Of a stretch of 64,000 bases of DNA, positions 13,827 through 52,329 are shown piece after piece. The notes under the pieces were generated by a model. That model made no database searches, was not told where the DNA came from, and saw only the letters and a program-made list of their open reading frames with translations. Origin of the DNA: Roseicella sp. DB1501 (GTDB lineage Bacteria; Pseudomonadota; Alphaproteobacteria; Acetobacterales; Acetobacteraceae); the NCBI RefSeq assembly GCF_013112485.1, contig NZ_JABFHG010000001.1, positions 186,001-250,000 on the forward strand. Reading direction: 5' to 3'. Each line of letters begins with the position of its first letter. The first letter of the stretch is position 1. The translations under genes and the position numbers were made by a program.

Positions 13827-13931
13827 CCGTCGCCGCCCGGTGCCCTGCCGCGGCAGGCTGTGACGCGCTCGGGCCGTGGGGCGAATCACAGGGTCCGCGC
13901 GAAGCCGCTTCGCGGCTTCGCGGGGAGTTCC
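13827..13931 (-). repeat. AB-family composite palindromic repeat (AB-1), reverse orientation
   Basis: Module A is a perfect hairpin with an 11-bp stem (CGCGAAGCCGC 13898-13908, loop TTC, GCGGCTTCGCG 13912-13922). Module B is at 13827-13864 and reads on the minus strand GTCACAGCCTGCCGCGGC then AGGGCACCGGGCGGCGACGG, with the inner stem shortened. GGAACTCCCC on the minus strand follows the TAG stop of the SDR at 13932 directly. It separates two convergent genes (mlaA and SDR). Confidence 0.7.
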
Positions 13932-14669
13932 CTACCGTCCGCCGCCGACCGGCAGCAGCGCGCCGCTGACATAGCTCGCGGCGTCGGAGAGCAGCCAGAG
14001 CACCGCCTCCGCCACCTCCTCGGCGCTGCCGCCGCGGGCGAGCGGCACGCCGGCCGACATGCGCTCGACCCGGTCCGGCATGCCGGCATTGGCGTGCAGC
14101 TCGGTGTCGATCAGCCCGGGATTGACGGCATTCACCCGGATGTTCTGCGGCCCGACCTCCCTGGCGAGGCCGATGGTGAGCGTGTCCACCGCCCCCTTGG
14201 TCGCGGCGTAGTGGATCCACTCGCCGGCGCCGCCGAGCGCGGAGGCGCGCGAGGAGATGTTGACGATCGACCCGCCGGAGGGCAGCCGCGCCAGCGCCGC
14301 GCGGCAGCAGGCGGCGAGGCCGAGGACATTGGTGCGGAACACCCTCTCCCAGACCTCGTCCGTGCTGTCGCGCAGCAGCGCCTTCGGCCCGGTGATGCCG
14401 GCATTGTTCACCAGCCCGTCGAGCCGGCCGAACTGCCGGTCCACCGCCTCGAAGGTGACGGCGACCGCCTTCGGATTGCCGACATCGGCCTGCATCGCCA
14501 GCGTGCGCGCCCCGGCCGCCTTCGCCGCCGCCTCGGTCTCCGCCGCACGCGCCGCATTGCCGGCATAGGTGAAGGCGACGTCGTAGCCGCGCGCCGCGGC
14601 CAGCCGCACCACCGCGGCGCCGATGCCGCGCCCGCCGCCGGTCACCAGCAGCACCTTCCGTTCCGTCAT
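13932..14669 (-). CDS. SDR family oxidoreductase
   Basis: 245 residues. Motifs: TGGGRGIG near residue 11, NNAGITG, SIVNISSRAS with the catalytic Ser, and YAATKGA with Tyr and Lys. The C-terminus SYVSGALLPVGGGR is typical. It is close to glucose/ribitol-type and FabG-like NADP-dependent SDRs; the substrate cannot be assigned. The ATG at 14669 follows GGGGAGGG; another in-frame ATG four codons upstream is possible. Divergent from the Bug receptor gene. Confidence 0.9.
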   Translation of the reverse strand: MTERKVLLVTGGGRGIGAAVVRLAAARGYDVAFTYAGNAARAAETEAAAKAAGARTLAMQADVGNPKAVAVTFEAVDRQFGRLDGLVNNAGITGPKALLRDSTDEVWERVFRTNVLGLAACCRAALARLPSGGSIVNISSRASALGGAGEWIHYAATKGAVDTLTIGLAREVGPQNIRVNAVNPGLIDTELHANAGMPDRVERMSAGVPLARGGSAEEVAEAVLWLLSDAASYVSGALLPVGGGR

Positions 14670-14766
14670 GGCCCTCCCCATCCCTGCGCTTTGCGGGCAG
14701 CATAGGGCCGAGACGAGCGAGGAGGGAGAGGATGTCCAGGAAAGGCCGCGTCCGCGACGCGGCGGG

Positions 14767-15762
14767 ATGCGCCGCATGCCGGTAGGCGGCAGCGGCCCCC
14801 GGCGGCGCGCGCTGCTCGCGGCCGCCCTCGCGGCGCCGGCCACGGTGCCGCGCCGCGCCGCCGCGCAGACGCGGGTCCTTCGCCTCGTCCTCGGCTTCCC
14901 GCCTGGCGGCTCGGCGGATTTCCTCGGCCGCGCCATGGCCGAGCCGCTCGGCGCCGCGCTCGGCGCGACGGTGGTGATCGACAACCGCCCCGGCGCCGGA
15001 TCCAACCTCGCCACCGAGCATGTCGCGCGCGCCGAGGCGGACGGTTCGGTGCTGCTGCTCGGCGGCAATTTCAGCCACGCGGTCAACCCGGTGATGTACC
15101 GGCGCGTGGCCTTCGACCCGATCGCCGATTTCACCGCCATCGGCCGCGTCTGCGACCTGCCGACGGTCATCGCGGTGAGCGCGGCGAGCGGCATCGCCAG
15201 CCTCGCCGATCTCCTCGCCCGCATGCGGGCCGAGCCGGGGCGCTGGAATTACGGCACGCCGGGCATCGGCACGCCGAGCCATCTCGCCGGCGCCAAATTC
15301 GCGCGGGTGACGGGGCTCGACTGGACGCATGTGCCCTTCCGCGGCGGCGCCCCCTCCCTCACCGCCCTGCTCGCCGGCGATATCGAGGTGATCATCGCCA
15401 CCCCGCCGGTGATCCTGCCGCATGTCCGCGCCGGCAAGGCGGTCGCCCTCTGCCTCACCACGGCGGCACCCTCCGCCGCCATCCCGGACGTGCCCGGCGC
15501 GGCGGAGGCCGGGCTGCCCGGGCTCGACATCGCCGGCTGGTACGGGATCTGGGCGCCGGCGCGCCTGCCCGCGCTGCAGCGCGACCGCGCCTTCGCCGCG
15601 CTCGGCAAGACGCTGGCTGATCCCGCGGTGCGGGCGCGCTTCGCCGGCGAGGGGCTGCGCGCCTGGCCGAGCGAGAGCCCGGCGGAATTCGACGCCTTCA
15701 TCCGCCAGCAGATGCCCTTCTGGGCCGAGGTCGTGCGCGACGCAGGAGCAACCGCCGAATGA
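14767..15762 (+). CDS. Tripartite tricarboxylate transporter substrate-binding protein (Bug family)
   Basis: 331 residues. The N-terminus has arginines (PRRRALLAAALAAP) before a hydrophobic stretch, so export may use the Tat or Sec route. The fold signature of Bug proteins is clear: LVLGFPPGGSADFLGRAMAEPL, VVIDNRPGAGSNLATEHVARAEADG, WNYGTPGIGTPSHLAG, HVPFRGGAPSLTALLAGDIEVI, and DIAGWYGIWAPARLP. These periplasmic receptors bind carboxylates. No TctA/TctB membrane genes are adjacent. The gene overlaps the next by ATGA, linking it to an iron alcohol dehydrogenase. Start could also be the ATG at 14776. Confidence 0.92.
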   Translation: MRRMPVGGSGPRRRALLAAALAAPATVPRRAAAQTRVLRLVLGFPPGGSADFLGRAMAEPLGAALGATVVIDNRPGAGSNLATEHVARAEADGSVLLLGGNFSHAVNPVMYRRVAFDPIADFTAIGRVCDLPTVIAVSAASGIASLADLLARMRAEPGRWNYGTPGIGTPSHLAGAKFARVTGLDWTHVPFRGGAPSLTALLAGDIEVIIATPPVILPHVRAGKAVALCLTTAAPSAAIPDVPGAAEAGLPGLDIAGWYGIWAPARLPALQRDRAFAALGKTLADPAVRARFAGEGLRAWPSESPAEFDAFIRQQMPFWAEVVRDAGATAE

Positions 15763-18263: not shown

Positions 18264-18453
18264 CGCCTCGGCATGGCCGGCAGGCGCATCCCCCCTTGCG
18301 CATCCGGCGCGACCGGCGCGAGCATCGCGGGCAACCGGGGCCGGGGCGGGCCGCGACCGCGCGACACCGCTCCGCAAGCAGGAAGGGACGGCAACGGGAG
18401 GTCGAAGCCCGCTGCCAGGCCGCCATCGACCCCGGCAGAGGAGGACGGACCCA

Positions 18454-19862: not shown

Positions 19863-19927
19863 CGCCCGGTCGGGCGCTTGACCACCCGCGGGGCCTGACG
19901 GAGTCTGCCGCTCCGGAGGAGACGGCC

Positions 19928-24756: not shown

Positions 24757-24914
24757 CCCGCGGAGGGATACGGCCGCAGGGGAATCATGCGGCCCTGGCG
24801 TTTTCGCCTGCGGCCGGGCGGCCATAGACTGGCGCCCGTGACGGGGCCGGCCTGGAGCAGACCGCAGGAGGGCGAGACCGCCCGGAGGCGTGACTCCGCT
24901 CCGGAAGCAGCAGG

Positions 24915-24957
24915 CCACGGCGGAGCGGCGTTCGATCCTGAACGCAGTCCGCCGTGG
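24915..24957 (+). promoter_or_regulatory. Strong hairpin in the leader of the Ldh-family gene
   Basis: CCACGGCGGA (24915-24924) pairs with TCCGCCGTGG (24948-24957), 10 bp perfect. Inside it GCGTTC (24928-24933) pairs with GAACGC (24940-24945). The structure ends 25 bases before the ATG at 24983. Just upstream is GACTCCGCTCCGGAAGCAG, nearly the same as a block in the leader of the LLM gene at 18454. It could be a regulatory leader; it matches no riboswitch class I know. Confidence 0.4.
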
Positions 24958-24982
24958 TTGCCGGCCGCAGGAGGGGAACGCC

Positions 24983-26098
24983 ATGGCGAAGAACGTGACC
25001 AGCGGCCGGCCGGTGCCGGCCGAGAGCATCCGGGCCCAGATCCACGCCATCCTCACCGCCTGGGGCATGCCGGAGGAGCATGCGGCGACGACGGCGCAGG
25101 TGATGGTCGAGACCGACCTGATGGGCGTCGACAGCCACGGCCTGTCGATGCTGATGACCTATGAGGAGGGCGTGCGGGCCGGCCGGCTGCAGATGCAGGC
25201 GAAGCCGCGCGTCGCCCGCGACACCGGCCCGACGGCGCTGCTCGATGCCGGGGACGGGCTCGGCCATCCCGTCTCGGCGCTCGCCATGGGCATGGCGGTG
25301 GACAAGGCGCTGCAATACGGCATCGGCGTCGTCGGCGTGGTGAACAGCCACCATTTCGGCGCCGCCGGCGCCTATGCGCGGATGGCGGCGGCGCGCGGCG
25401 TCATCGGCCTCGTCACCAGCTCGGCCCAGGGCATCACCATGGTGCCGACGCGCGCCGCCATGCCGGTGCTCGGCACCAACCCGCTCGCCTTCGCCGCCCC
25501 GGCCGGGCGCAACAAGCCCTTCGTGCTGGACATGGCGACGACGACGGTCGCCGCCGGCAAGGTGAAGGTGCACCATCTGAACGACGCGCCGCTGCCGCCC
25601 GGCTGGGTGGTGGACGGCACCGGCCGGACCGTCACCGACCCGCATGAGGGCAACGCCTATGTCTTCCAGCGCAAGGAGGGCGGCATCACCCCGCTCGGCG
25701 GCACGGAGACCCAGGGCAGCGCCAAGGGCTACGGCCTCGCCATGATGGTGCACATCCTGGGCGGCGCGTTGACCGGCGCCGCCTTCTCGCCGATCCACAA
25801 GCGGACATGGACGCCGGACAAGCCGCAGAATATCGGCCATTTCTTCCTCGCCCTCGATCCGCGCGCCTTCCGCGAGGAGGGCGCGTTCGAGGCCGAGCTC
25901 GACAGCATCCTCGACGTGCTGCATGCGACGCCGCCCGCCGATCCGGCCGAGCCGGTGCTGGTGCCGGGCGAGCCGGAGGACATCATGCGCGAGAAGCGCC
26001 TGGCCGAGGGCGTGCCGGTGCCGGATTCCCTCGACGCGCTGATCCGCGGCATCTGCGAGCGCAGCGGCGCGCCCTATCTGCTGCGGCCGAACGAGTAA
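24983..26098 (+). CDS. Ldh family NAD(P)-dependent oxidoreductase (malate/L-lactate dehydrogenase type 2)
   Basis: 371 residues. Family marks: LMGVDSHGLSML with catalytic His, VVNSHHFGAAGAYARMAAARGVIGLVTSS, VLGTNPLAFAAPAG and LDMATTTVAAGKV, GSAKGYGLAMMVHILGG. These sulfolactate/malate/ureidoglycolate-type enzymes interconvert 2-hydroxy and 2-oxo acids and are unrelated to classical LDH. ATG at 24983 has GGAGGGGAAC before it. It is a single gene with a structured leader; an AB repeat follows. Confidence 0.9.
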   Translation: MAKNVTSGRPVPAESIRAQIHAILTAWGMPEEHAATTAQVMVETDLMGVDSHGLSMLMTYEEGVRAGRLQMQAKPRVARDTGPTALLDAGDGLGHPVSALAMGMAVDKALQYGIGVVGVVNSHHFGAAGAYARMAAARGVIGLVTSSAQGITMVPTRAAMPVLGTNPLAFAAPAGRNKPFVLDMATTTVAAGKVKVHHLNDAPLPPGWVVDGTGRTVTDPHEGNAYVFQRKEGGITPLGGTETQGSAKGYGLAMMVHILGGALTGAAFSPIHKRTWTPDKPQNIGHFFLALDPRAFREEGAFEAELDSILDVLHATPPADPAEPVLVPGEPEDIMREKRLAEGVPVPDSLDALIRGICERSGAPYLLRPNE

Positions 26099-26102
26099 TC
26101 AT

Positions 26103-26213
26103 CCCCACGGCGTCGCCGCACGCCGTCGCGGGGGCCTCGATGCAGCCCCGATCGGCTCGGATCCGTCACAGCCTGCCGCGGCGAAGCCACGGCAGGGCAA
26201 CGGGCGGCGACGG
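26103..26213 (+). repeat. AB-family composite palindromic repeat (AB-2)
   Basis: Module A, 26103-26133: CCCCACGGCG, loop, CGCCGTCGCGGGG. Module B, 26164-26213: CGTCACAGCCTGCCGCGGC, GAA, GCCACGGCAGGGC, then AACGGGCGGCGACGG. Same order and spacing as AB-3. It lies between convergent ldh-type and phnZ-like genes. Confidence 0.75.
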
Positions 26214-26227
26214 CTCCGGCGGGCGGC

Positions 26228-26800
26228 CTATGACCCGATGGGCCGCAGGCAGCGGGCGACGGCGGGCAGGAAATGCTCGACGGGCGGGGTGGCGAGGTCC
26301 TTCACCTTGGCCTGCTCGTCGAAGCGCCGCAGCAGCACGGCCTCCCGCGCCCCGGGCAAGGCGATGAAGCCGGCGGCCTCCGCCTCCGACATCGGGCCGC
26401 CCTGCAAGGCGAGGCTCAGCACCGAATCCGGCGCCAGCCGGGCGACATAGTCCGGCTCGGTCGCGACGAGATAGCGCTTGGCCGCGACATGCAGCCGCAC
26501 CGGCTCGGTCACCTCCGGCCCGAACCAGGCGCGGAGGAAGGCATCGCCCCGCTCCTCGTGCCGGTCGTCCACTCCCTCGGCCGCCGGATCCTCGCCGAGG
26601 TCGTGCACCAGATGGCCGATATCGTGCAGCAGGCTGGCGGCGACGAGCGCATCGCCGCAGCCCGCCTGCTCGGCGAGCCAGGCCGCCTGCAGCGCGTGCT
26701 GCCGCTGGTTGATCTCGGCGAGGCCGTAGCGGCCTTCCGCCCGCAGGGTCAGCAGCCCGGCGATGTGCCGCAGCCGCGGATCGGCGGGCGGCGCGCTCAT
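26228..26800 (-). CDS. PhnZ-like HD-domain oxygenase
   Basis: 190 residues. The sequence YGLAEINQRQHALQAAWLAEQ followed by LLHDIGHLV, the later histidine in RHEERGDAFLRAW, RLHVAAKRYL and the ending LLRRFDEQAKV is that of 'phosphonate degradation associated HDIG' proteins (PhnZ, TIGR03276 type), mixed-valent di-iron oxygenases that cleave C-P bonds of hydroxylated phosphonates. The HD motif is intact. The usual partner PhnY is not beside it. It overlaps the upstream NTF2-like gene by four bases, so its true partner may be that protein. A role with non-phosphonate substrates is possible. Confidence 0.75.
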   Translation of the reverse strand: MSAPPADPRLRHIAGLLTLRAEGRYGLAEINQRQHALQAAWLAEQAGCGDALVAASLLHDIGHLVHDLGEDPAAEGVDDRHEERGDAFLRAWFGPEVTEPVRLHVAAKRYLVATEPDYVARLAPDSVLSLALQGGPMSEAEAAGFIALPGAREAVLLRRFDEQAKVKDLATPPVEHFLPAVARCLRPIGS

Positions 26801-30029: not shown

Positions 30030-31280
30030 ATGAGTCTCAACCAGACCCGCCATATCCGCCTGACCTCGCATCCCGAGCCGCAGGCCCATCGCTGGCAGAT
30101 CAACTGGGGCGCCGCGACGCCGGTGGCGCGCGGCCCGGTCATCGGCTCCGTCACCCGGCCGCAGGACCGCAACGTCATCGGCACCCATGGCGGCTCCTAC
30201 TCCCTCTACCGGGCGCTGGCCGTCTCCGCCGGCGCCCTCTCGCCGCTGCAGCGGCCAGACCTCGCCAACACCCATCCGGTGACCGCGATCGGGCCCCATC
30301 CGCAATGGAGCGAGCCGGGGCGGATCGTCTCCCTCGACCCCTGGGGCCATGTGGTCGGCGAGGCCTTCGCGGATGCCATCGGCGAGGGCATCGACATCCG
30401 CCCGACCATCGCCATCACCCGCGCCCGGCTGAACATGGCCGAGCTGAACGCGCTGCTGGCCAGCGGCAAGCTGAAGTCCGATGGCCGCGTGCTGCATCCG
30501 GGCGGCGACGTCTCGGTCACCAAGGCGGCGATCGATCCGGTCTGGTGGCTGCCCGGCATCGCCGAGCGCTTCGGCACCGCCGAGCACGAGCTGCGCCGCG
30601 TGCTCTTCGAGCAGACCGGCGGCATGTATCCCGAGCTGGTGACGCGGCCCGACCTCTCCGTCTTCCTGCCGCCCATCGGCGGCATCAGCGTCTACATCTT
30701 CGGCGACCCGGCGCATCTGGCGGACCGCCGCGTGCCGCTGACCTGCCGCGTGCATGACGAGTGCAACGGCTCCGACGTCTTCGGCTCCGACATCTGCACC
30801 TGCCGCCCCTATCTCATCCACGGCATCGAGGAGAGCCTGCGCGCGGCGCAGGAGGGCGGCGTCGGCCTCGTCGTCTACAACCGCAAGGAGGGCCGGGCGC
30901 TCGGCGAGGTCACGAAATTCCTCGTCTACAACGCCCGCAAGCGGCAGGAGGGCGGCGACCAGGCCGCCACCTATTTCGAGCGCACCGAATGCGTCGCCGG
31001 CGTGCAGGATGCACGCTTCCAGCAGCTCATGCCGGATGTGCTGCACTGGCTCGGCGTGACGAAGATCCACCGCCTCGTCTCCATGTCCAACATGAAGCAC
31101 GACGCCATGGTGGAGCAGGGCATCGAGATCGGCGAGCGGGTGCCGATCCCGCCCGACCGCATCCCGCCCGATGCCTCGGTCGAGATCGAGGCCAAGAAGG
31201 CGGCGGGCTATTACGCGCCGGAGGTGCCGGACCCGGCGGCGCTGCAGCGCACCGTCGGCCGCGCCCTGGGGGAGATGTGA
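30030..31280 (+). CDS. URC1-type GTP cyclohydrolase II-like protein (uracil catabolism)
   Basis: 416 residues, twice the size of RibA. The C-terminal part has the cyclohydrolase II core with altered zinc site: CRVHDECNGSDVFGSDICTC (about residues 240-260), VYNRKEGRALGEVTKFLVYNARK, and the LGVTKIHRLVSMSNMKHDAM segment. The N-terminal about 220 residues are unlike RibA. This architecture is that of Urc1 proteins, which in yeasts (Lachancea kluyveri) are needed for uracil use as nitrogen source. The next gene is the URC4 homologue, which strengthens the call. Start is ATG at 30030, with a weak ribosome site; GTG at 30006 is possible. Confidence 0.85.
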   Translation: MSLNQTRHIRLTSHPEPQAHRWQINWGAATPVARGPVIGSVTRPQDRNVIGTHGGSYSLYRALAVSAGALSPLQRPDLANTHPVTAIGPHPQWSEPGRIVSLDPWGHVVGEAFADAIGEGIDIRPTIAITRARLNMAELNALLASGKLKSDGRVLHPGGDVSVTKAAIDPVWWLPGIAERFGTAEHELRRVLFEQTGGMYPELVTRPDLSVFLPPIGGISVYIFGDPAHLADRRVPLTCRVHDECNGSDVFGSDICTCRPYLIHGIEESLRAAQEGGVGLVVYNRKEGRALGEVTKFLVYNARKRQEGGDQAATYFERTECVAGVQDARFQQLMPDVLHWLGVTKIHRLVSMSNMKHDAMVEQGIEIGERVPIPPDRIPPDASVEIEAKKAAGYYAPEVPDPAALQRTVGRALGEM

Positions 31281-32506
31281 CGCCGGAGGCGGCGGCCGCC
31301 GCGGCGCTGCTGACGCCCGAGGCGGTGCGCAGCCGCGCGGCGGAGATCCACGCCCTCGGCCTGGAGGACCGGCTGCAGGCCTGGCGCCTGCAGCCGGAGC
31401 GGCTGGCGGCGGCGGCCGATGCCGTGGCGGCGGTGGTGCGGGACCGGCATCCCGATCTGCGGGTGCCGCCGCATACGCGCTGGCGTCACCTGCTGCCGGA
31501 CGGCGCCTCGCTGCTGGCCCTGATCGCCGCGCGGCTCGACCACGACCCGGCGGCGCTGCTGCGGGCGCGGATGGACCTCATCATCCTCTCCGTGCTGCTC
31601 GATGCCGGGGCGGGGATGAGCTGGCGCTACATCGACCTCGAGACGGGCCGCTGCCACACGCGCTCCGAGGGGCTGGCCCTGGCGAGCCTCGCCATGTTCG
31701 CCCGCGGCGACTTCGCCGATGACGGCCGCTCCCCCCGCGCCGATGCGGCGCGGCTCGCCGGCATGACGGCCGAGGCGCTGGGCCGCGGCTTCCAGGCCGG
31801 GCCGGACAACCCTCTGGCCGGGCTGGAGGGCCGCGCCGCGCTGCTCCGCCGGCTCGGCGAGACCATGGCGGCATCGCCCGGCGTCTTCGGCCAGGTCTAT
31901 CCGCCGCGGCCGAGCGGGCTGATCGACGGCCTCACCGCCGAGATCACCGAGGGCAGCCTGCCGGCGCGCAGCATCCTCATCGCGCTGCTGCGGCATCTCG
32001 GCCCGATCTGGCCGGGGCGGGAGGCGCTGGGCGGCGTCAATCTCGGCGATTGCTGGCGCCATCCCGGCATCCGCCGCGCCGATGCGACGAACGGCCTGAT
32101 CCCCTTCCACAAGCTCTCGCAATGGCTGGCCTATTCGCTGATCGAGACGCTGGAGCTGGCCGGCATCGCGGTCTCCGGCACCGAGGCGCTGACAGGCCTG
32201 CCGGAATACCGCAATGGCGGCCTCTTCCTCGATCTGAGGGTGATCGCGCCGCGCGACCCCTCGCTGCTGGAGATGGAGCACGCGCCCGGCGACCTGGCGA
32301 TCGTCGAATGGCGGGCGTTGACCGTTGCGCTGCTCGATGCCGTGGCACCGCTGGTGCGGGCGAGGCTCGGGCTGGACGAGGCGGCCTTCCCCCTCGCCCG
32401 GGTGCTGGAGGGCGGCACCTGGTGGGCCGGCCGCCGCCTCGCCCGCGAGCGCCGCGCCGATGGCGGCCCGCCGCTGCGCATCGTCAGCGATGGCACAGTC
32501 TTCTGA
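31277..32506 (+). CDS. URC4/Urg3 family protein (DUF1688)
   Basis: 409 residues with a GTG start (31277) overlapping the URC1 stop by GTGA; GGGGGAG lies just before. Matches DUF1688: SRAAEIHALGLEDRLQ, PPHTRWRHLLP, DAGAGMSWRYIDLETG, FPDNPLAGLEGR-like GPDNPLAGLEGRAALLRRLG, and GTPFHKLSQWLAYSL-like GLIPFHKLSQWLAYSLIETLE. In fungi Urc4 works with Urc1 in the URC route that degrades uracil through a ribosylurea intermediate; its exact reaction is still not settled. The tight pair here indicates a bacterial form of that route. Confidence 0.88.
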   Translation: MTPEAAAAAALLTPEAVRSRAAEIHALGLEDRLQAWRLQPERLAAAADAVAAVVRDRHPDLRVPPHTRWRHLLPDGASLLALIAARLDHDPAALLRARMDLIILSVLLDAGAGMSWRYIDLETGRCHTRSEGLALASLAMFARGDFADDGRSPRADAARLAGMTAEALGRGFQAGPDNPLAGLEGRAALLRRLGETMAASPGVFGQVYPPRPSGLIDGLTAEITEGSLPARSILIALLRHLGPIWPGREALGGVNLGDCWRHPGIRRADATNGLIPFHKLSQWLAYSLIETLELAGIAVSGTEALTGLPEYRNGGLFLDLRVIAPRDPSLLEMEHAPGDLAIVEWRALTVALLDAVAPLVRARLGLDEAAFPLARVLEGGTWWAGRRLARERRADGGPPLRIVSDGTVF

Positions 32507-32509
32507 ACT

Positions 32510-32620
32510 CCCCACGGCGTCGCTGCGCGCCGTCGTGGGGCCCCCCTGGGATCCCTCCTGAACCTTGATCCGTCACAGCCTGCCGCGACTTGGCCGCAGC
32601 AGGGCAACGGGCGGCGACGG
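32510..32620 (+). repeat. AB-family composite palindromic repeat (AB-3)
   Basis: Starts GAACTCCCC right at the TGA stop of the URC4 gene. Module A, 32510-32540: CCCCACGGCG, loop TCGCTGCG, CGCCGTCGTGGGG. Module B, 32571-32620: CGTCACAGCCTGCCGCGAC, TTG, GCCGCAGCAGGGC, AACGGGCGGCGACGG. It separates the convergent URC4 and LysR genes. Confidence 0.75.
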
Positions 32621-32636
32621 GTGCTGCGATGCTGGC

Positions 32637-33548
32637 TCAGCGCTCCGACCGCAGCACCGGGAGGGCGGCGAGGCGTGGCGCGGCGAAGTCGAGGAAGGCA
32701 CGCACCCGCGCCGGCAGCAGCCGCGCCGAGGGGAAGACGAGCGAGACCGGCAGCACCGGCGGCTCGGCCTCGCGCAGCAGCCGCACCAGCGCGCCGGAGG
32801 CGAGCTCCGCCTCCATCTGATAGGAAAGCGCGCTCAGGACGCCATGCCCCGCCACCGCGGCGGCGACCGCGGCGCGCGCCTCGTTCACCGCGAAGCGCCC
32901 GGGCAGGCGCAGCGTCGCCGCTTCCCCGCCCTGCCCGCGGAAGCGCCATTCCGCTGGCGTCGCGCGGCTGTGGAAGAGGATGACGTCATACGCCGCGAGG
33001 TCCTCCGGCCGCGCCGGCACGCCGCGCCGGGCCAGGTAGTCCGGACTCGCCGCGACCAGCCGCCGGACGCTGCCGAGGCGCCGCGCCACCAGCCCGCCCT
33101 CGGTCAGCGGCCCGATGCGCAGCGCGACATCGATCCCCTCCTCCACCAGGTCGAGATTGCGGTCGCTGAGCTGCAGCTCCGCCGTCACCATGGGCTGCTC
33201 GCCGAGGAAGGCGGTGACGACCGGCGCCACGTGCAGCCGGCCGAAGACGAGCGGCGCGGTGACGCGCAGGCGGCCGCGCAGGGACGCCGCCTCGCCGGCC
33301 GCCGCCGAGACCGCCTCGGCATAATCGGCCAGCAGCCGCCGGGCCCGGTCCGCGAGGTGGCGCCCCGCCTCGGTCGGTGCCAGGCGGCGGGTGCTGCGCT
33401 CGAGCAGCCGGACGCCGAGCCGCTCCTCCAGCCCGGCCAGCATGCGGGACATGGCAGGCGGCGACTGGCCATGCCGCCGCCCGGCCGCGGCGAGGCTGCC
33501 GGCCTCGATCGCCGCCAGAAAGAGGCGCAATTCGTCGAGCCGATCCAT
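32637..33548 (-). CDS. LysR family transcriptional regulator
   Basis: 303 residues. N-terminal winged HTH: ELRLFLAAIEAGSLAAAGRRHGQSPPAMSRMLAGLEERLGVRLLERSTRRLAPTEAG, then the inducer-binding periplasmic-type domain (LRGRLRVTAPLVFGRLHVAPVVTAFL, GIDVALRIGPL). The CrgA/DmlR-like subgroup (RLRVTAPxxFG) fits. It is divergent from a PPOX-family gene at 33645 with 96 bases between, so it probably controls that gene and itself from this intergenic region. Confidence 0.93.
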   Translation of the reverse strand: MDRLDELRLFLAAIEAGSLAAAGRRHGQSPPAMSRMLAGLEERLGVRLLERSTRRLAPTEAGRHLADRARRLLADYAEAVSAAAGEAASLRGRLRVTAPLVFGRLHVAPVVTAFLGEQPMVTAELQLSDRNLDLVEEGIDVALRIGPLTEGGLVARRLGSVRRLVAASPDYLARRGVPARPEDLAAYDVILFHSRATPAEWRFRGQGGEAATLRLPGRFAVNEARAAVAAAVAGHGVLSALSYQMEAELASGALVRLLREAEPPVLPVSLVFPSARLLPARVRAFLDFAAPRLAALPVLRSER

Positions 33549-40726: not shown

Positions 40727-41563
40727 ATGGATGGCACGACCGGGATGGAGGCTTTGCAGGCAGCGGCGCTCGCGGCCCGCTATGGCGGGGCGGTGCCGCA
40801 GGCCGGCCCCTGGAACGCGACCATCGCCGGACTGCTCGGCCACCGCTCGGTGCGCGGCTACCGTCCCGATCCGGTGCCACCCGGCACGCTGGCGACACTG
40901 ATCGCCGCAGCGCAATCCGCCGCCACCTCCTCGAACCTGCAGACCTGGTCGGTGGTGGCGGTCGGGGATCCCGCGACACGCGCGGCGATGGCGGAGATCG
41001 CCGGCGGGCAGGCGCATATCACCGAATGCCCGCTCTTCCTCGTCTTCCTCGCCGATGTCTCGCGCAACGCGCGGCTGGGCGAGGCCGAGGGGCGTGAACT
41101 CGAGGGCCTGCCCTACCTCGAGACCTTCCTCGTCGCCGCCATCGATGCCGCGCTGGCGGCGCAAAATGCCGTGGTGGCGGCCGAGAGCCTCGGCCTCTCG
41201 ACCGTCTATATCGGGGCGCTGCGCAACGACCCGACGCGGGTGGCCAAGCTGCTCGGCCTGCCGCCCGGCGCCGCCGGCGTCTTCGGCCTCTGCATCGGCT
41301 ACCCGAAGCCTGGCGCCGAAGGCGAGGTGAAGCCGCGGCTGCCGCAATCCGTGGTGCTGCATCACGGTCGCTACGATGCCGGCGCCGAGCCGGCGGCGAG
41401 GGCGGCCTACGACGCCGAGATGTCCGCCTTCTCCCGCCGCAACGAGATGGCGGCCGATAGCTGGACCCAGCGGGTGATCGCCCGGATCGGCACCATCCGG
41501 GCGCTGCGCGGCCGCGACCACCTGGCGGCGACGCTGCGGAGCCTCGGCTTCCCGCTGCGCTAG
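40727..41563 (+). CDS. Nitroreductase family protein (NfsA-like FMN oxidoreductase)
   Basis: 278 residues. HRSVRGYRPDPVPPGTLATLIAAAQSAATSSNLQTWSVVAV is the nitroreductase N-terminal FMN site; GLPYLETFLVAAIDAALAAQNAVVAAESLGLSTVYIGALRNDP and GLCIGYP follow. NADPH-dependent reduction of nitroaromatics or quinones. ATG at 40727 with GGGAGCGCAGG. The TAG stop is the first three bases of a D repeat that follows. Confidence 0.9.
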   Translation: MDGTTGMEALQAAALAARYGGAVPQAGPWNATIAGLLGHRSVRGYRPDPVPPGTLATLIAAAQSAATSSNLQTWSVVAVGDPATRAAMAEIAGGQAHITECPLFLVFLADVSRNARLGEAEGRELEGLPYLETFLVAAIDAALAAQNAVVAAESLGLSTVYIGALRNDPTRVAKLLGLPPGAAGVFGLCIGYPKPGAEGEVKPRLPQSVVLHHGRYDAGAEPAARAAYDAEMSAFSRRNEMAADSWTQRVIARIGTIRALRGRDHLAATLRSLGFPLR

Positions 41564-41765
41564 ACCATGATCCGCTCACACAGGTTCACGAACCATGGTC
41601 CAGGCCGTTGTTTGATCGCGTGATTCATGCCTGCGGTGAGTCACCTCAGGCGATCGCGCCTAGAGCAGATCCCGTTCGAGTGGAAACATCCGAACGGGTG
41701 AAGATGCTCTGAAAGCGAGAGGCCAGAGCATCTGCCGTAAGCGCAGGTGACCGGAAATGCTCTAA
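41561..41765. repeat. D-family repeat plus two AGAGCA-bounded palindromic units (D-1)
   Basis: Begins TAGACCATGATCCG at the stop of the nitroreductase gene; GACCATG...CCATGGTC forms an imperfect hairpin, followed by the D body (CAGGCCGTTGTTTGATCGCG). From 41662 an element AGAGCA...TGCTCT encloses CCCGTTCG/CGAACGGG, and at 41725-41765 a second AGAGCAT...ATGCTCT unit follows. The latter are like the small intergenic palindromes common in Rhizobiales-type genomes. It is between convergent genes. Confidence 0.7.
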
Positions 41766-44417: not shown

Positions 44418-45767
44418 GTGAGCGCCGCCTCCCCGCCGCAGCCGGTATCCTTGGCGGCGGCGGCGTGGCTCTGGCTGCGGATCGGCTGCCTCTCCTTCGG
44501 CGGACCGGCCGGGCAGATCGCGCTGCTGCACCGCGAGGTGGTGGAGGAGCGGCGCTGGGTCTCCGATGCCCGCTTCCTGCATGCGCTGAACGTCTGCACG
44601 CTGCTGCCGGGGCCGGAGGCGACGCAGCTCGCCACCTATCTCGGCTGGCTGCTGCATGGCGTGCCGGGCGGGCTGGCGGCCGGACTGCTCTTCCTGCTGC
44701 CCGGCGCGCTGGTGATGCTCGGGCTCTCCGCCCTCTATATCGGCTTCGGCGAGGTGCCGGCCATCGCCGGGCTGTTCTACGGCCTGCAATGCGCCGTGCT
44801 GGTGCTGGTGGTCGAGGCGCTGCTGCGGCTTGCGCGCCGCACGCTGGCGGGGCCGCCGGCCCTGGCCGTCGCACTCGGCGCTTTCCTCGCGCTCGCCTTC
44901 TTCGGCCTGCCCTTCCCGCTGGTCGTCCTGGCGGCCGGGCTGGTGGGGCTGCTCTGGCCCGCCGGCTTCCTCGCCGATCATGGCCGCGCGGCGAAGCCTG
45001 GGCCGCCCGTCCTGCTCGACCTGCTGCTGGCGGCGGAGCCGGACCGCATCGCCCGCGCCGCCGGTCCGGCGCGGCGGGCGGGCCTGCTGGCGCTTCTCCT
45101 CTGGCTCCTGCCGGTCGTCCTGCTGGCGGGGCATCCGCCCTGGGGCGACCTCGCCTGGTTCTTCGCCAAGCTTGCCGTCGTCACCTTCGGCGGCGCCTAT
45201 GCGGTGCTTGCCTATGCCGCGCAGCAGGCGGTCGAGCAGCATCACTGGCTGAGCGCGGCGCAGATGCTGGCCGGGCTCGGCCTGGCCGAGACCACGCCGG
45301 GGCCGCTCATCCTGGTGCTGCAATTCATCGGCACCCTGGCCGGCCATGCGGCGGCGGGCCTGCTTGGCGGCCTGGCCGGCGCGGCGCTGACGCTCTGGGT
45401 GACCTTCCTGCCCTGTTTCGCCTGGATCTTCCTGGCCGCGCCGCATGCCGAGCAGCTGCACGAGGCGGCGCGGCTGCGGGGGGCGCTCGCGGCGGTGACG
45501 GCGGCTCTGGTCGGCGTCATCGCCAGCCTCGCGCTGTGGTTCGGGCTGCGGGTGCTGTTCGGCGCGCTGCGCGAGGTCACGCTCGGACCGCTGCGGCTGG
45601 AGCTGCCGCTGGCGGCCAGCCTCGACCCGGTGGCGGCGCTGCTGGTGCTGCTGGCGGCGGTCTGCCTGCTGCGCATGCGCGTGCCGATGCTGCGGAGCCT
45701 CGCCCTCACCGCCCTGGCGGGGATGGTGCTGCGGCTCGCCTTCGGCTGGCTGCTCGGCCGGCCTTAG
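44418..45767 (+). CDS. chrA: Chromate transporter (ChrA family)
   Basis: 449 residues. Two homologous CHR domains of about 200 residues each: first with WLWLRIGCLSFGGPAGQIALLHREVVEERRWVSDARFLHALNVCTLLPGPEATQLATYLGWLLHG; second with FFAKLAVVTFGGAYAVLAYAAQQAVEQHHWLSAAQMLAGLGLAETTPGPLILVLQFIG. The inner-membrane protein exports chromate by proton exchange. GTG at 44418 is the only start that gives normal length; its ribosome site is weak. TAG stop is part of the adjoining D repeat. No ChrB regulator nearby. Confidence 0.93.
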   Translation: MSAASPPQPVSLAAAAWLWLRIGCLSFGGPAGQIALLHREVVEERRWVSDARFLHALNVCTLLPGPEATQLATYLGWLLHGVPGGLAAGLLFLLPGALVMLGLSALYIGFGEVPAIAGLFYGLQCAVLVLVVEALLRLARRTLAGPPALAVALGAFLALAFFGLPFPLVVLAAGLVGLLWPAGFLADHGRAAKPGPPVLLDLLLAAEPDRIARAAGPARRAGLLALLLWLLPVVLLAGHPPWGDLAWFFAKLAVVTFGGAYAVLAYAAQQAVEQHHWLSAAQMLAGLGLAETTPGPLILVLQFIGTLAGHAAAGLLGGLAGAALTLWVTFLPCFAWIFLAAPHAEQLHEAARLRGALAAVTAALVGVIASLALWFGLRVLFGALREVTLGPLRLELPLAASLDPVAALLVLLAAVCLLRMRVPMLRSLALTALAGMVLRLAFGWLLGRP

Positions 45768-45869
45768 ACCATGATCCGCTCACACAGGGTCGCGGATCAT
45801 GGTCCAGGCCGTTGCTTGATCGCGTGAGTCTCGACCTTCGGTGAGTCCACCTTAAGCGATCACGCTCTG
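45765..45869 (+). repeat. D-family palindromic repeat (D-2)
   Basis: Starts TAGACCATGATCCG with its TAG serving as chrA stop. GACCATGATCCG (45768-45779) pairs perfectly with CGGATCATGGTC (12 bp, 14-base loop CTCACACAGGGTCG). The body CAGGCCGTTGCTTGATCGCG, GTGAGTC, GGTGAGTCCACCTTAAGCG, ATCACGCTCT matches D-4 inverted. It is followed directly by AB-4. Confidence 0.75.
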
Positions 45870-45874
45870 GAATC

Positions 45875-45985
45875 CCCCACGAAGCCGCTTCGCGGCTCCG
45901 TGGGGACCCCATGAGGTTTCCTCTTGCCCAGAATCCGTCACGGCCTGCCACGGCGAAGCCGCGGCAGGGCTACGGGTGGCGACGC
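45875..45985 (+). repeat. AB-family composite palindromic repeat (AB-4)
   Basis: Module A, 45875-45905: CCCCACGAAGCCGC, loop TTC, GCGGCTCCGTGGGG, 14 pairs with one mismatch. Module B, 45936-45985: CGTCACGGCCTGCCACGGC, GAA, GCCGCGGCAGGGC, TACGGGTGGCGACG. Between convergent chrA and histidine-kinase genes, directly after D-2. Confidence 0.75.
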
Positions 45986-46032
45986 TTCCGACAGGCGCTT
46001 CTCATGCCTTGGTCAGGCGGGAGCGCCGGACC

Positions 46033-47211: not shown

Positions 47212-47261
47212 TTCTAGAAATCTGGCTGTTGCCGCCCGGGGCGGCGCTAACAGACGGCCTC

Positions 47262-47401
47262 AGAGCGTATCGCCGCAGGGTGAAGTCACCCGAAGGCGAG
47301 ACTCAGTGCTGCAAACAATGCTCTAGACCATGGTCCAGGCCGTTGTTTGATCGCGTGAGTCACGCTTTTCGGTATTTCCACCGCAAGCGATCGCGCTCTA
47401 G
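47262..47401. repeat. D-family repeat, composite copy (D-3)
   Basis: Two arms meet at CTCTAGACC (47320-47328). Left arm (47262-47325) starts AGAGCGTATCGCCGCAGGG and ends ATGCTCTA; right arm has GACCATGGTCCAGGCCGTTG, TTTGATCGCGTGAGTC and ends GATCGCGCTCTA. The last TA together with C forms, on the minus strand, the TAG stop of the sterol desaturase gene (47398-47400). The hairpin of the other copies is collapsed to GACCATGGTC. Confidence 0.7.
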
Positions 47402-48342: not shown

Positions 48343-48357
48343 CGGTCTGCTGCGGGC

Positions 48358-50228: not shown

Positions 50229-50314
50229 GGCCCAGTATCCCTAACTACGGGCGGGAAAATCTCTCCGCCGGATCGCTAATGCAAGCTATCATTCCCGGGG
50301 CGGGCCATGGTGGT

Positions 50315-50743: not shown

Positions 50744-50758
50744 CGGCCCTCCTGTGCC

Positions 50759-51337
50759 TCAGGCCGCCGGCCGCTTGAGCCGGTCGGCATAGAGTTTCCT
50801 GAACTTCGCCACCTTGGGGGCGATCACCACCTGGCAATAGCCGCTCCAGGGGGTGCGGGCGAAGTAGTCCTGATGCTCCGGCTCGCCCGGCCAGTAGCGG
50901 TCGAAGGGCACCAGCTCGGTGACGAGCGGGGCGCCCCAGATGTCCTGCGCCGTCACCTCCGCCATCACCCGCTCCGCCGCCGCCTTCTGCTCCGGCGAAT
51001 GATGGAGGACGATGGAGCGGTATTGCGGCCCGATATCGTTGCCCTGGCGGTCCTTGGTGGTCGGGTCGTGGATGGTGAAGAAGACCCGCAGCAGATCCTC
51101 GTAGGAGATCACCGCCGGATCGAAGGTGACCTGCACCACCTCGGCATGGCCGGTGCGCTTGCCGCAGACCATCTCGTAGCTGGGATTTTCCACATGCCCG
51201 CCGGCATAGCCGGAATGCACCGCCGTGACGCCCTTGAGGTCGCGGAACACCGCATCCAGGCACCAGAAGCAGCCGCCCCCCAGGGTGGCGACCTCGGTAG
51301 TGCCCGTGGGCCTCGTCCCGCTCGTGCCTCCGCTCAT
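50759..51337 (-). CDS. msrA: Peptide-methionine (S)-S-oxide reductase MsrA
   Basis: 192 residues. Active site GCFWC with nucleophile Cys, then VFRDLKGVTAVHSGYAGGHVENPSYEMVCGKRTGHAEVVQVTFDP and PEQKAAAERVMAEV. Repairs S-methionine sulfoxide. ATG at 51337 follows GGGAGGTAAGGG. A preceding extension of 27 codons would be needed for an earlier start and has no family support. Head of the msrA-msrB unit. Confidence 0.97.
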   Translation of the reverse strand: MSGGTSGTRPTGTTEVATLGGGCFWCLDAVFRDLKGVTAVHSGYAGGHVENPSYEMVCGKRTGHAEVVQVTFDPAVISYEDLLRVFFTIHDPTTKDRQGNDIGPQYRSIVLHHSPEQKAAAERVMAEVTAQDIWGAPLVTELVPFDRYWPGEPEHQDYFARTPWSGYCQVVIAPKVAKFRKLYADRLKRPAA

Positions 51338-51495
51338 GCCCTTACCTCCCGCTTCGTCCTGGCCCCATAGATAGGGAGCCCCGGCCCGCGGTGCAGCGCC
51401 CCGCCCCAAACGCCCCATGCCAGGCGGCGCCCGGGCATGGACGCCGCGCCCGCCGCGGGCGAGACTCGCGCCTGGGATGGAGCGGGGAGCCGGCG

Positions 51496-51864
51496 ATGGG
51501 CCTGAAGCGCATGGTGCTGCAGATCGGCATGGGGACCGATATCCGCGGCGGCGAGCCGACCAAGGCCGCGGTGCGGGCGCTGCGCGACGCGCTCTGGCAC
51601 AACTCGCTCACCGTCACCCATGCCCTCGGCGTCGACGTCGATTCCATGCAGGTGAAGGTGACCATCGGGGTGCCGCATCCGGAGCAAGTCGACCGGGAGG
51701 CGGTGCTGGCGGTGCTGCCGCACGGCACCGGCACGGTGGAGGTGGTCGCGGGCGGGCTCGAGATTCCGACCGAGGATGGCAGCGGCGTCACCCTGCTCGC
51801 CCAGGCGGCGGCCGAGGTCTTTCTCGACCTACCCGGGCCGGCGCCGGCGGGAGGCCGGGCATGA
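51496..51864 (+). CDS. Lin0512 family protein, first of a tandem pair
   Basis: 122 residues. Matches the Lin0512 family: MVLQIGMGTDIRGGEPTKAAVRALRDALWHNSLTVTHALG, VDSMQVKVTIGVPHPEQVDREAVLAVLPHG, VEVVAGGLEIPTEDG. Family function is unknown. ATG 51496 with a GGGGAG site. Its stop overlaps the start of a second Lin0512 gene. The divergent neighbour is msrA. Confidence 0.88.
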   Translation: MGLKRMVLQIGMGTDIRGGEPTKAAVRALRDALWHNSLTVTHALGVDVDSMQVKVTIGVPHPEQVDREAVLAVLPHGTGTVEVVAGGLEIPTEDGSGVTLLAQAAAEVFLDLPGPAPAGGRA

Positions 51865-52214
51865 GCGCGCCCAAGGCCAGCCCGCGCCGCGTCATCCTCG
51901 AGCTCGGCACCGGCAACGACCTGCATGGCGGCGACTACACCAAGGCGGCGCTGCGGGCGGTGCAGGACGCGCTGCACCATTCCTCCCTCACCATGCTGCG
52001 CTCCCTCGGCGTCGATCCGGCGGCGATGCTGGTGGAGGTGACCATCGGCGTGCAGCGCCCGGAGCGGGTGGAGGCGGAGCGGGTCCGCGCCTCCCTGCCG
52101 CATGGCCAGGTGACGGTCCGGGTGGTGCGGGGCGGGCTGGACGTGCCCGATCCCGGCCGCGACGACCCGGCGGTGATCGCCAGCGCCGCCATCGCGGTGC
52201 GGCTGCCGCTGTAG
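51861..52214 (+). CDS. Lin0512 family protein, second of a tandem pair
   Basis: 117 residues. Same family: VILELGTGNDLHGGDYTKAALRAVQDALHHSSLTMLRSLG, AMLVEVTIGVQRPERVEAERVRASLPHGQVTVRVVRGGLDVPDPG. Overlaps the first by ATGA. The two share the order of elements but differ in sequence, so they probably form a heterodimer (inference). TAG stop is followed by the AACTCCCC that begins AB-5. Confidence 0.88.
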   Translation: MSAPKASPRRVILELGTGNDLHGGDYTKAALRAVQDALHHSSLTMLRSLGVDPAAMLVEVTIGVQRPERVEAERVRASLPHGQVTVRVVRGGLDVPDPGRDDPAVIASAAIAVRLPL

Positions 52215-52329
52215 AACTCCCCACAACACCGCTTCGCGGCCTTGCGGGGGCCCCGTAGGGTTCCCTCCTGCCCAAGGCGCGCCACAGCCTGCTGCGGCAA
52301 AGCCGCAGCAGGGCAACGGGAGGCGATGG
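52215..52329 (+). repeat. AB-family composite palindromic repeat (AB-5)
   Basis: Follows the Lin0512 TAG directly with AACTCCCC. Module A (52219-52249): CCCCACAACACCGC, TTC, GCGGCCTTGCGGGG, with mismatches. Module B, 52281-52329: GCCACAGCCTGCTGCGGC, AAA, GCCGCAGCAGGGC, AACGGGAGGCGATGG, a perfect stem. C->T and G->A changes in B relative to AB-2/AB-4 preserve pairing. Between convergent Lin0512 and arsC. Confidence 0.75.

What the first reader, a model, noticed from the sequence alone, without database searches (positions are those of the whole stretch)
13827..52329. AB: a composite palindromic repeat found only between convergent genes (5 of 5)
Copies at 13827-13931, 26103-26213, 32510-32620, 45875-45985 and 52215-52329. 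Each has hairpin A (CCCCAC...GTGGGG type) then hairpin B (GCCTGCCGCGGC/GCC-CGGCAGGGC) with a conserved tail GGGCAACGGGCGGCGACGG. All five fall between genes that converge: mlaA/SDR, ldh/phnZ-like, URC4/LysR, chrA/kinase, Lin0512/arsC. In three copies GAACTCCCC or AACTCCCC starts at or right after the stop codon, and in AB-1 the minus-strand GGAACTCCCC follows the SDR TAG. Stem sequence differs between copies with pairing largely kept (CTGCTGC/GCAGCAG in AB-5 against CTGCCGC/G-CGGCAG types). The strict position points to a terminator or anti-read-through role for converging transcripts, in addition to being a mobile or REP-like repeat.
Basis: partly seen in the sequence, partly recalled or inferred. 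Interest (0 to 1): 0.7.

Follow-up and report, generated by a model that had tools for sequence, protein, structure and literature searches.

The report
Paired hairpins anchored behind stop codons
A two-hairpin DNA repeat sits a few letters behind the stop codons of well over a hundred genes in this bacterium, keeps its folding through matched mutations in related genera, and looks like a device at the ends of messenger RNAs, akin to the REP repeats of other bacteria but with a stricter place.

Summary
The five copies are real and lie between convergent genes, but "only convergent" fails genome-wide. At 50 bits or more, 167 copies in 1.49 Mb of the own genome split 103 convergent, 64 co-directional, 0 divergent; none has its midpoint in a called gene. 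The real rule: the 5' end follows a stop codon, in sense. Of 64 co-directional copies 61 are sense; in 137 of 164 sense copies hairpin A starts -4 to +9 nt from the stop, 128 at 1-6. Top-scoring copies of six genera agree. 20 of 29 pairs change on both sides. Between orthologous copies, stems A and B change 1.7 and 3.4 times less than the linker; element-free congeners keep the stop at the same codon in 20 of 21 comparisons at 9 sites. Models match 37 of 397 family genomes, 7 genera, and 0 of 16 genomes from other families. No RAYT in element-rich genomes, no U-tract, no Rfam match; a CGTC motif precedes hairpin B here but pairs and is not kept elsewhere. Best reading: a REP/BIME-like family acting as two-sided 3'-end RNA module. 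Function is inferred, not shown.

The parts
13807..13930 (-). AB1, full element by model R1, behind the stop (TAG) of the minus-strand SDR gene 13932-14669
   Evidence: R1 104.5 bits; 6 nt from stop to hairpin A
13895..13925 (-). AB1 hairpin A (31 nt)
   Evidence: sequence, structure of A3
13844..13857 (-). AB1 hairpin B, shortened to the palindrome CCTGCCGCGGCAGG
   Evidence: sequence and alignment
26098..26233 (+). AB2, full element, behind the TAA of the Ldh_2 gene 24890-26098
   Evidence: R1 107.7 bits; copy at the orthologous place in R. frigidaeris, there with doubled hairpin A
26103..26133 (+). AB2 hairpin A
26172..26196 (+). AB2 hairpin B core stem (11 bp, 3-nt loop)
32505..32640 (+). 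AB3, full element, behind the TGA of the DUF1688 gene 31277-32506
   Evidence: R1 110.4 bits; no element at the same stop codon in G001, G002 and G004
32510..32540 (+). AB3 hairpin A
32579..32603 (+). AB3 hairpin B core stem
45870..46005 (+). AB4, full element, 102 nt behind the TAG of the chromate transporter gene 44418-45767
   Evidence: R1 125.1 bits; repeat C lies in between
45875..45905 (+). AB4 hairpin A
45944..45968 (+). AB4 hairpin B core stem
52214..52349 (+). AB5, full element, behind the TAG of the Lin0512-family gene 51861-52214
   Evidence: R1 129.6 bits
52219..52249 (+). AB5 hairpin A
52288..52312 (+). AB5 hairpin B core stem

Best explanation
AB is a family of dispersed, REP/BIME-like repeats whose resident copies serve as two-sided 3'-end modules of the genes they follow. 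Shown here: an element of about 130 nt, hairpin A (14 pairs, 3-nt loop), a linker of about 30 nt, then hairpin B (11 pairs plus an outer helix), standing in sense orientation with A a few nt behind the stop codon; pairing is conserved between vertically inherited copies; and gene ends without the element stop at the same codon. Inferred: in the mRNA of the upstream gene, hairpin A refolds behind the terminating ribosome (and may delay it, as stop-proximal REPs are reported to do in E. coli), while hairpin B, whose outer helix begins about 64 nt behind the stop and so outside the ribosome's shadow, ends or protects the transcript. Read from the other side, A is the distal hairpin and is the more stable on that strand, so opposing transcripts are ended or protected at the gene boundary before they run antisense into the gene. 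How copies spread is unknown; no dedicated transposase was found.
For: Location and orientation: 167 copies, 103 convergent, 64 co-directional, 0 divergent, none with its midpoint in a called gene, 61 of 64 sense; 137 of 164 sense copies within -4 to +9 nt of the stop, 128 at 1-6; CGTCAC of hairpin B at a median of 64 nt (103 copies holding that hexamer). Other genomes, 124 copies of which 2 at locus edges: 45 convergent, 70 co-directional sense, 7 antisense, 0 divergent, 0 in genes; 92 of 115 sense copies within -6 to +12 nt. Structure: cells changed on both sides 185 against 65 +/- 5 and 205 against 74 +/- 6 in shuffles, 0 of 500 as high, slid controls far lower. Conservation of pairing: in 20 orthologous pairs (24 found, 4 skipped) substitutions are 18.7% in the linker, 10.9% in stem A, 5.5% in stem B; of 438 Watson-Crick pairs 411 are unchanged, 12 changed on both sides and still paired, 15 broken. 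Stop at the same codon in element-free congeners in 20 of 21 comparisons at 9 sites. Hairpin A more stable on the antisense strand in 102 copies against 23 of 133 folded; antisense wobble (A.C) to sense wobble (G.U) 184 to 49 in 151 copies. E. coli: terminators 5-6 bp behind a stop are repressed, full effect needs more than 27 nt (PMC4824070, abstract and passages); REPs within 15 nt of a stop are reported to stall ribosomes (PMC12306157, passages and introduction, citing Liang 2015, which I did not read).
Against: No expression data. No U-tract, so an end at B would have to be Rho-linked or made by exonuclease trimming. The antisense bias of hairpin A sits mainly at three pairs (150 of the 184 A.C cells) and may be a founder effect; 127 further cells are other mismatches; and the bias is the same in convergent and co-directional copies, so it is not tuned to opposing transcription. 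Hairpin B has hardly any strand bias (means -21.0 and -21.1 kcal/mol; sense better in 89, worse in 43). The best-scoring copy folds only moderately better than shuffles (z -2.0 sense, -1.8 antisense; 5 and 6 of 200 shuffles as good). Many copies lie in co-directional gaps, where a two-sided barrier is less needed. Copy number runs from 1 to well over 100 and some congeners have none, so the function is dispensable. Gene conversion between copies, which would also keep stems alike, was not tested.
Confidence: 0.45

Rival explanations
1. Translational brake: hairpin A right behind the stop codon stalls terminating ribosomes, lowering output or triggering mRNA cleavage, as reported for stop-proximal REPs in E. 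coli; hairpin B is secondary.
For: Spacing of A (mode 4-5 nt) lies inside the 15-nt window reported for E. coli REPs (PMC12306157, passages). Genes next to AB have a shifted stop codon (TAG 56, TGA 55, TAA 25 of 136 against TGA 825, TAG 187, TAA 48 of 1060; p 5e-21). Of 14 comparisons with TGA in the element-free congener 8 have TAG or TAA in the AB bearer, while all 7 with TAG kept it (21 comparisons at 9 sites, not independent), as if termination had been adjusted.
Against: The AT-rich leader (67% AT against 22%) and low structure before the stop would ease rather than block termination. Hairpin A is the less stable on the sense strand. Does not explain the stronger conservation of hairpin B.
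Confidence: 0.22
2. Selfish non-autonomous element without host function: it inserts behind stop codons by target preference, and pairing is kept only because source copies must fold to move.
For: Patchy distribution (2 of 5 genomes of the genus rich in copies; copy number 1 to at least 151), lineage-specific consensus, lone or doubled hairpins, and another repeat at stop codons in the same genome.
Against: Orthologous copies, more alike than random paralogs (mean 83% against 76% identity), keep pairing far better than their linker changes would allow. No Y1 transposase in G000, G003, G082 and G156. Among 14 lone A and 7 lone B hairpins in the fetched stretches no A and B lie on the same stretch within 5 kb, so no autonomous copy was seen.
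Confidence: 0.2
3. DNA-level element: the palindromes bind a nucleoid protein or gyrase, or extrude as hairpins, and lie behind genes because transcription-driven supercoiling acts there.
For: Both hairpins are palindromic. Hairpin A has the loop GC-TNC-GC in 130 of 151 copies, that is GC-GNA-GC on the other strand, a very stable DNA mini-hairpin (recalled; only a search listing was seen). Gyrase acts on E. coli REPs (PMC3733652, discussion part 1).
Against: Strict orientation and spacing to the stop codon are hard to explain by supercoiling alone; 0 copies between divergent genes.
Confidence: 0.09
4. One reading: terminator specific for converging transcripts.
For: 24 of 34 C1 copies convergent against 4.2 to 6.5 expected.
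Against: 64 of 167 copies are co-directional; in the other genomes examined co-directional copies predominate; no U-tract; strand bias equal in both contexts.
Confidence: 0.04

Closest known systems
REP/BIME repeats in the broad sense (E. coli REPs; definition in PMC12306157, introduction)
   Same: Extragenic palindromes in many copies, 3' of genes, often close to the stop codon; paired hairpins of opposite polarity.
   Different: Here two different hairpins form one conserved unit of about 130 nt with fixed orientation towards the gene; 128 of 164 sense copies start 1-6 nt from the stop, against 446 of 4,072 E. coli REPs within 15 nt by RepRanger, or 260 of 496 in the older count (both from passages of PMC12306157).
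CGTC-tagged REPs of alphaproteobacteria (PMC3733652: abstract, passages, section 15, part 1 of section 17)
   Same: Alphaproteobacterial palindromes, mostly dimers, no dedicated transposase, between convergent and co-directional genes, often under 20 bp from the stop. In the own genome CGTC stands within 8 nt before the hairpin B core in 116 of 167 copies.
   Different: Stems 14 and 11 bp against 8-9, loops 3 nt against 4-5, no CCA tail. The CGTC is predicted to pair with GACG and is replaced in the other genera. That paper lists CGTC repeats as missing from Acetobacteraceae.
GTAG-tagged REPs with RAYT transposases (PMC3733652; PMC2817692 search listing only)
   Same: Palindromes; GTAG termini often supply the TAG stop.
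   Different: GTAG within 8 nt of a hairpin foot in 12 of 167 copies, all before hairpin A where the stop codon lies; no Y1_Tnp gene in the element-rich genomes tested.
Bidirectional intrinsic terminators
   Same: Hairpins between converging genes.
   Different: No U-tract, conserved primary sequence, multi-copy family, and frequent in co-directional gaps.

Membership tests
REP in the broad sense (criteria in PMC12306157, introduction) | Extragenic, seldom overlapping coding regions | tested here: met
   0 of 167 copies with midpoint in a called gene; 0 of 122 placed elsewhere
REP in the broad sense (criteria in PMC12306157, introduction) | Palindromic stem-loops sharing a consensus | tested here: met
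REP in the broad sense (criteria in PMC12306157, introduction) | Short (14-40 nt) and in many copies | tested here: inconclusive
   Each hairpin fits (31 and 25 nt) but the conserved unit is about 130 nt; copy number from 1 (G247, G019, G307) to at least 151
REP in the broad sense (criteria in PMC12306157, introduction) | Transcribed from extragenic regions | not testable with these tools
   no RNA data
CGTC-tagged REP | Unpaired terminal CGTC (or TGTC, CCTC) tag | tested here: inconclusive
   CGTC stands before hairpin B in 116 of 167 own copies, but pairs with GACG in 94% of cells of A3, and is replaced in other genera, partly with partner changes
CGTC-tagged REP | Stem 8-9 bp, loop 4-5 nt, CCA-like tail | tested here: not met
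   14 bp and 11 bp stems with 3-nt loops, tail GGGCAACGGG type
GTAG REP / RAYT system | Tyrosine transposase (Y1_Tnp) in the genome | tested here: not met
   PF01797 absent from G000, G003, G082, G156 (also G001, G002, G203); found in G004, in which no element was found, and in 5 of 14 control genomes
GTAG REP / RAYT system | GTAG tetranucleotide at the hairpin foot | tested here: not met
   GTAG at a foot in 12 of 167 copies, all before hairpin A
Intrinsic (Rho-independent) terminator | GC-rich hairpin followed by a run of T | tested here: not met
   2 of 136 copies by a simple scan; the antisense tail behind hairpin A is A-rich, not T-rich
Known RNA family | Match to a curated Rfam model | tested here: not met
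   no match in the window at gathering score; in five loci of five genera no match at the element reaches its gathering score
Stop-proximal, ribosome-stalling REP (E. coli) | Hairpin within 15 nt of the stop codon | tested here: met
   137 of 164 sense copies within -4 to +9 nt
Stop-proximal, ribosome-stalling REP (E. coli) | Ribosome stalling and mRNA cleavage | not testable with these tools
   needs ribosome profiling or reporters

The most novel reading that the evidence does not exclude
AB is a family of dispersed RNA elements whose defining rule is contact with the stop codon: a repeat that reached the ends of well over a hundred genes, sits in the terminating ribosome's footprint, goes with a changed stop codon (TGA to TAG or TAA) and last codon, and couples translation termination to formation of both opposing 3' ends.
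Probability: 0.22. Interest if true: 0.82.

Novelty: new variant of a known kind. Interest (0 to 1): 0.6.

Why it matters
What REP-type repeats do is an old open question. Here two rules that are blurred in E. coli, distance to the stop codon and orientation to the gene, are sharp and hold in several genera; element-free congeners keep the same stop codons; and genomes range from 1 to well over 100 copies. That gives matched pairs of genes with and without the element, and so a natural test of whether stop-proximal hairpins act on ribosome release, on 3'-end formation, or on nothing. The stop codon shift (60% TAG or TAA next to AB against 22% elsewhere) is an unexpected, testable trace of an effect on translation termination.

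Tried and rejected
RAYT-driven REP: rejected for the element-rich genomes tested. Intrinsic terminator with U-tract: rejected. CGTC-REP membership: stem, loop and tail do not fit; the tag is inconclusive. Truncation artefact (element carries stop codons and cuts genes short, so a stop always precedes it): rejected, since element-free congeners stop at the same codon in 20 of 21 comparisons at 9 sites and one codon later in 1. Autonomous version with A and B flanking a transposase: none among 14 lone A and 7 lone B in 1.49 Mb, about a quarter of the genome. Hairpin A tuned to opposing transcripts: not supported, as the wobble bias is equal in convergent (104 to 27) and co-directional (80 to 22) copies. 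Leader GAAC pairing with tail GTTC, and RNase E cleavage in the AT-rich leader: ideas only, not tested.

Counting rules: all hits of 50 bits or more in the fetched stretches were used (34 on C1, 133 elsewhere); weaker hits were dropped, many of them other-strand echoes of the palindromes. Three antisense copies were left out of the 164 spacing counts; 27 sense copies lie outside -4 to +9 nt, 6 of them at 39-55 nt (doubled hairpin A in those looked at) and 11 with the element start 95-140 nt off (repeat C in several). In one search I entered 94 of the 98 rows (left out: L296 of G307, L297 of G001, and the rows under 50 bits in L290 and L302) and 34 of the 38 rows (four under 50 bits left out); identical sequences were counted once, giving 124. 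These loci are the best-scoring of each search or were picked for holding copies, not a random sample. One search folded 133 of 167 copies, one search used 151 of 167, one search used 20 of 24 ortholog pairs. Alignments A5 and A6 were fitted to the model, which leans towards its structure; A3 is a MAFFT alignment without that bias and also beats its shuffles. Copy numbers from the genome search are lower bounds where all scored candidates matched. An earlier notebook entry counts G019 among the genomes of A5; its locus L033 was searched but is not in that alignment.
Full report
1. Is it there? The tail pattern with up to 3 mismatches occurs five times in the window against a mean of 0.01 in shuffles. 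They align as one element: a short AT-rich leader, hairpin A of 31 nt (14 pairs, 3-nt loop), a linker of about 30 nt, CGTCACAG, hairpin B (11 pairs, 3-nt loop), and the tail GGGCAACGGGCGGCGACGGTT. AB1 lies on the minus strand and has a shortened hairpin B; AB4 is parted from its stop codon by about 100 nt of another repeat. Rfam has no match in the window, and none at the element that reaches its gathering score in five further loci.

2. How many copies? The own genome (5,991,797 bases, 47 contigs) holds 118 tail matches against 3 for the reversed pattern. A covariance model (R1, 27 copies) finds 151 matches at E 0.01, a lower bound because 150 candidates were scored. I fetched C1:1-700000 without regard to copies, plus 85 stretches round known copies. 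At 50 bits or more these hold 34 and 133 copies. By my count by eye 29 of the 34 C1 copies were, which suggests about 175-180 in all (inference).

3. Where do they sit? With a gene caller trained on the genome's own codon use (653 genes on C1, 88% coding), the 167 copies fall 103 between convergent genes, 64 between co-directional genes, none between divergent genes, and none has its midpoint inside a called gene. On C1 the counts are 24, 10 and 0, against 4.2, 18.9 and 10.9 by intergenic length, or 6.5, 21.0 and 6.5 by pair number. Convergent gaps are enriched but not exclusive. Two sharper rules appear. In co-directional gaps 61 of 64 copies point the same way as the genes (p 5e-15). And the first base of hairpin A lies -4 to +9 nt from the stop codon in 137 of 164 sense copies, 1-6 nt in 128. 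Of the other 27, 6 lie at 39-55 nt and 11 start 95-140 nt off; several of the former have a second hairpin A in front, several of the latter repeat C.

4. Is this general? In the other genomes looked at (R. frigidaeris G003; G082, G156 and G203 of genus g79; genera g52, g60, g111, g16; 124 distinct copies, two at locus edges), 45 are convergent, 70 co-directional sense, 7 co-directional antisense, none divergent or in genes, and 92 of 115 sense copies are within -6 to +12 nt of the stop. These loci are mostly best-scoring ones, not a random sample.

5. Who has it? The own genome is an unnamed member of the same GTDB genus; NCBI files Roseicella under Roseomonadaceae. The tail pattern is abundant in 2 of 5 genomes of the genus (118 and 83; G001, G002 and G004 have 5, 2 and 3, with 3, 2 and 1 for the reversed pattern) and, among 397 genomes of the family, stands out otherwise only in two of genus g79 (33 and 19). 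That pattern is narrow: G203 of the same genus has 0 tail matches but 47 matches of model R1, and G082 and G156 have 149 each with 150 scored. With the wider model R2, 37 of 397 genomes in 7 genera match at E 1e-5, although only 8 candidates per genome were scored. Model R3 (up to 88 scored per genome) gives 11-26 copies in six genomes of g52, 7-20 in five of g60, 1-51 in five of g111, 1-2 in two of g16, 1 in one of g118, 3 weak ones in congener G001 (the one seen is a lone hairpin A, L297), 0 in G002 and G004, and 0 in 16 genomes from 16 other families of the class. Spread is patchy and copy number varies widely.

6. Is the structure selected? In A6 (67 copies, 6 genera), 20 of 29 pairs show changes on both sides, 185 such cells against 65 +/- 5 in shuffles (0 of 500 as high), and slid structures score far lower; A5 with 92 copies agrees (205 against 74 +/- 6). 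A5 and A6 are model-fitted; the MAFFT alignment A3 also beats its shuffles (26 cells against 11.5 +/- 2.2, 0 of 500). A single well-scoring copy folds only moderately better than shuffles (z -2.0 and -1.8 on the two strands). Source copies that must fold to move could explain covariation without any host function, so I compared orthologous copies in the own genome and R. frigidaeris. In 20 pairs with 95% identical flanks the elements are 83% identical (random paralogs 76%). Substitutions are 32% in the leader, 18.7% in the linker, 22% in the tail, but 10.9% in stem A and 5.5% in stem B. Of 438 Watson-Crick pairs 411 are unchanged, 12 changed on both sides and stayed paired, 15 broke. At the linker rate about a third would have been hit. 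So pairing is conserved in resident copies, which points to selection; gene conversion between copies is an alternative I did not test.

7. Which came first, stop or element? At 9 sites with alignable element-free congeners (21 comparisons in G001, G002 and G004), the stop is at the same codon in 20 and one codon later in 1. The element did not make its stops by truncating genes. The stop itself often differs: in 8 of 14 comparisons where the congener has TGA the AB bearer has TAG or TAA, and in all 7 where it has TAG the bearer has TAG. In the fetched sample, AB neighbours use TAG 56, TGA 55, TAA 25 (of 136), other genes TGA 825, TAG 187, TAA 48 (of 1060; p 5e-21). The AT-rich stretch reaches from the middle of the last codon to about +4. 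Of 42 R. frigidaeris copies tested, 30 could be placed in the fetched own DNA: on C1, 7 of 10 places have the element in the same orientation, 3 do not, and 2 of these 3 keep a hairpin A or part of one beside the stop; in the stretches picked for copies, 16 of 20 have it, 1 in the other orientation, 3 not.

8. Polarity. Hairpin A is more stable on the antisense strand in 102 copies against 23 (mean -23.2 against -19.9 kcal/mol, 133 folded), hairpin B slightly more often on the sense strand (89 against 43, means equal). Wobble-type mismatches in A favour the antisense strand 184 to 49, equally in convergent and co-directional copies; 127 cells are other mismatches. The loop reads GC-TNC-GC in 130 of 151 copies, hence GC-GNA-GC on the other strand; such loops are known as very stable mini-hairpins (recalled; search listing only). 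A and B thus look of opposite polarity, like the two members of a REP dimer. A founder effect is possible for A.

9. How does it work? Shown: position, orientation, structure, conservation of pairing, distribution. Inferred: function. A sense-strand intrinsic terminator is unlikely, since there is no T-run (2 of 136; other ends 3 of 112 and 4 of 160) and, in E. coli, ribosomes repress terminators 5-6 bp behind the stop, with full effect only beyond 27 nt (PMC4824070: abstract and passages). Hairpin A is inside that shadow; the outer helix of hairpin B starts at a median of 64 nt. E. coli REPs within 15 nt of a stop are reported to stall ribosomes (PMC12306157, passages and introduction, citing Liang, Rudd and Deutscher 2015, which I did not read). 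I commit to a two-sided 3'-end module in which B serves the sense and A the antisense transcript and A also touches the terminating ribosome (0.45). The pure translational brake (0.22) and a purely selfish element (0.20) are the main rivals.

10. What is known? REPs lie mostly downstream of genes, often under 20 bp from the stop, and GTAG termini often supply the TAG (PMC3733652, section 15). CGTC REPs are the alphaproteobacterial class, lack a dedicated transposase, and are listed as missing from Acetobacteraceae (PMC3733652, abstract, passages, discussion part 1). AB does not fit their stem, loop and tail. The tag is a point against my separation: CGTC stands before hairpin B in 116 of 167 own copies, but it pairs with GACG in 94% of cells of A3 and is replaced in other genera, so descent from a CGTC REP cannot be excluded. 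The element-rich genomes tested lack Y1 transposases. Seven literature searches listed no paper whose title or abstract start describes this element; the library is open-access full text, without most subscription journals. I class it as a new variant of a known kind: a REP/BIME-like repeat with an unusually strict stop-codon rule.

11. Limits. Genes are my own calls. Capped searches give lower bounds. No RNA or protein data were available.

Noticed in passing
window 41561-41626, 45765-45868, 47296-47399: A second repeat of about 100 nt (repeat C, beginning TAGACC and ending ATCACGCTCT): 53 hits of 60 nt or more in the 1.49 Mb fetched; 34 of 53 have an end within 6 nt of a called stop codon, and in the window its first letters TAG are the stop of two genes. 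Looks like a TA-bounded MITE; in AB4 it lies between stop and AB.
   Followed up: partly
C1 near 594694 of the own genome; R. frigidaeris loci L238 and L246: A further palindromic repeat (CACCCGATCAG...CTGATCGGG type) appears beside stop codons where AB is missing in one of the two species.
   Followed up: no
R. frigidaeris loci, e.g. L229 about 11950-12130, L240, L248: Hairpin A is often doubled in R. frigidaeris (spacing 45-51 nt in 6 of 31 sense copies), less often in the own genome (6 of 164 at 39-55 nt); sequences.
   Followed up: partly
own genome, fetched stretches: Genes next to AB have 60% TAG or TAA stops against 22% elsewhere, and an AT-rich last codon.
   Followed up: yes
L138 3084-3219 and L237 4260-4394: At the same gene end the element points one way in the own genome and the other way in R. 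frigidaeris.
   Followed up: no
L105 about 3049-3257: A copy with hairpin B units in tandem (repeat of the GATGCGTCACAGCC...GCCGCG unit), seen in the output.
   Followed up: no
L297 (congener G001) and L296 (G307, genus g118): L297: a lone hairpin A behind a TAG in a congener otherwise almost without the element (44.4 bits). L296: the single copy of G307 (61.6 bits), behind a TGA, with an enlarged hairpin A.
   Followed up: partly
L272 512-597, minus strand: Rfam match to suhB/mmgR sRNA (43.1 bits, above the gathering score of 41) in a genome of genus g111.
   Followed up: no
own genome, fetched stretches: Hairpin plus T-run terminators are rare at all classes of gene ends scanned (0-3%), so 3' ends in this organism may be formed mostly in other ways.
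   Followed up: no
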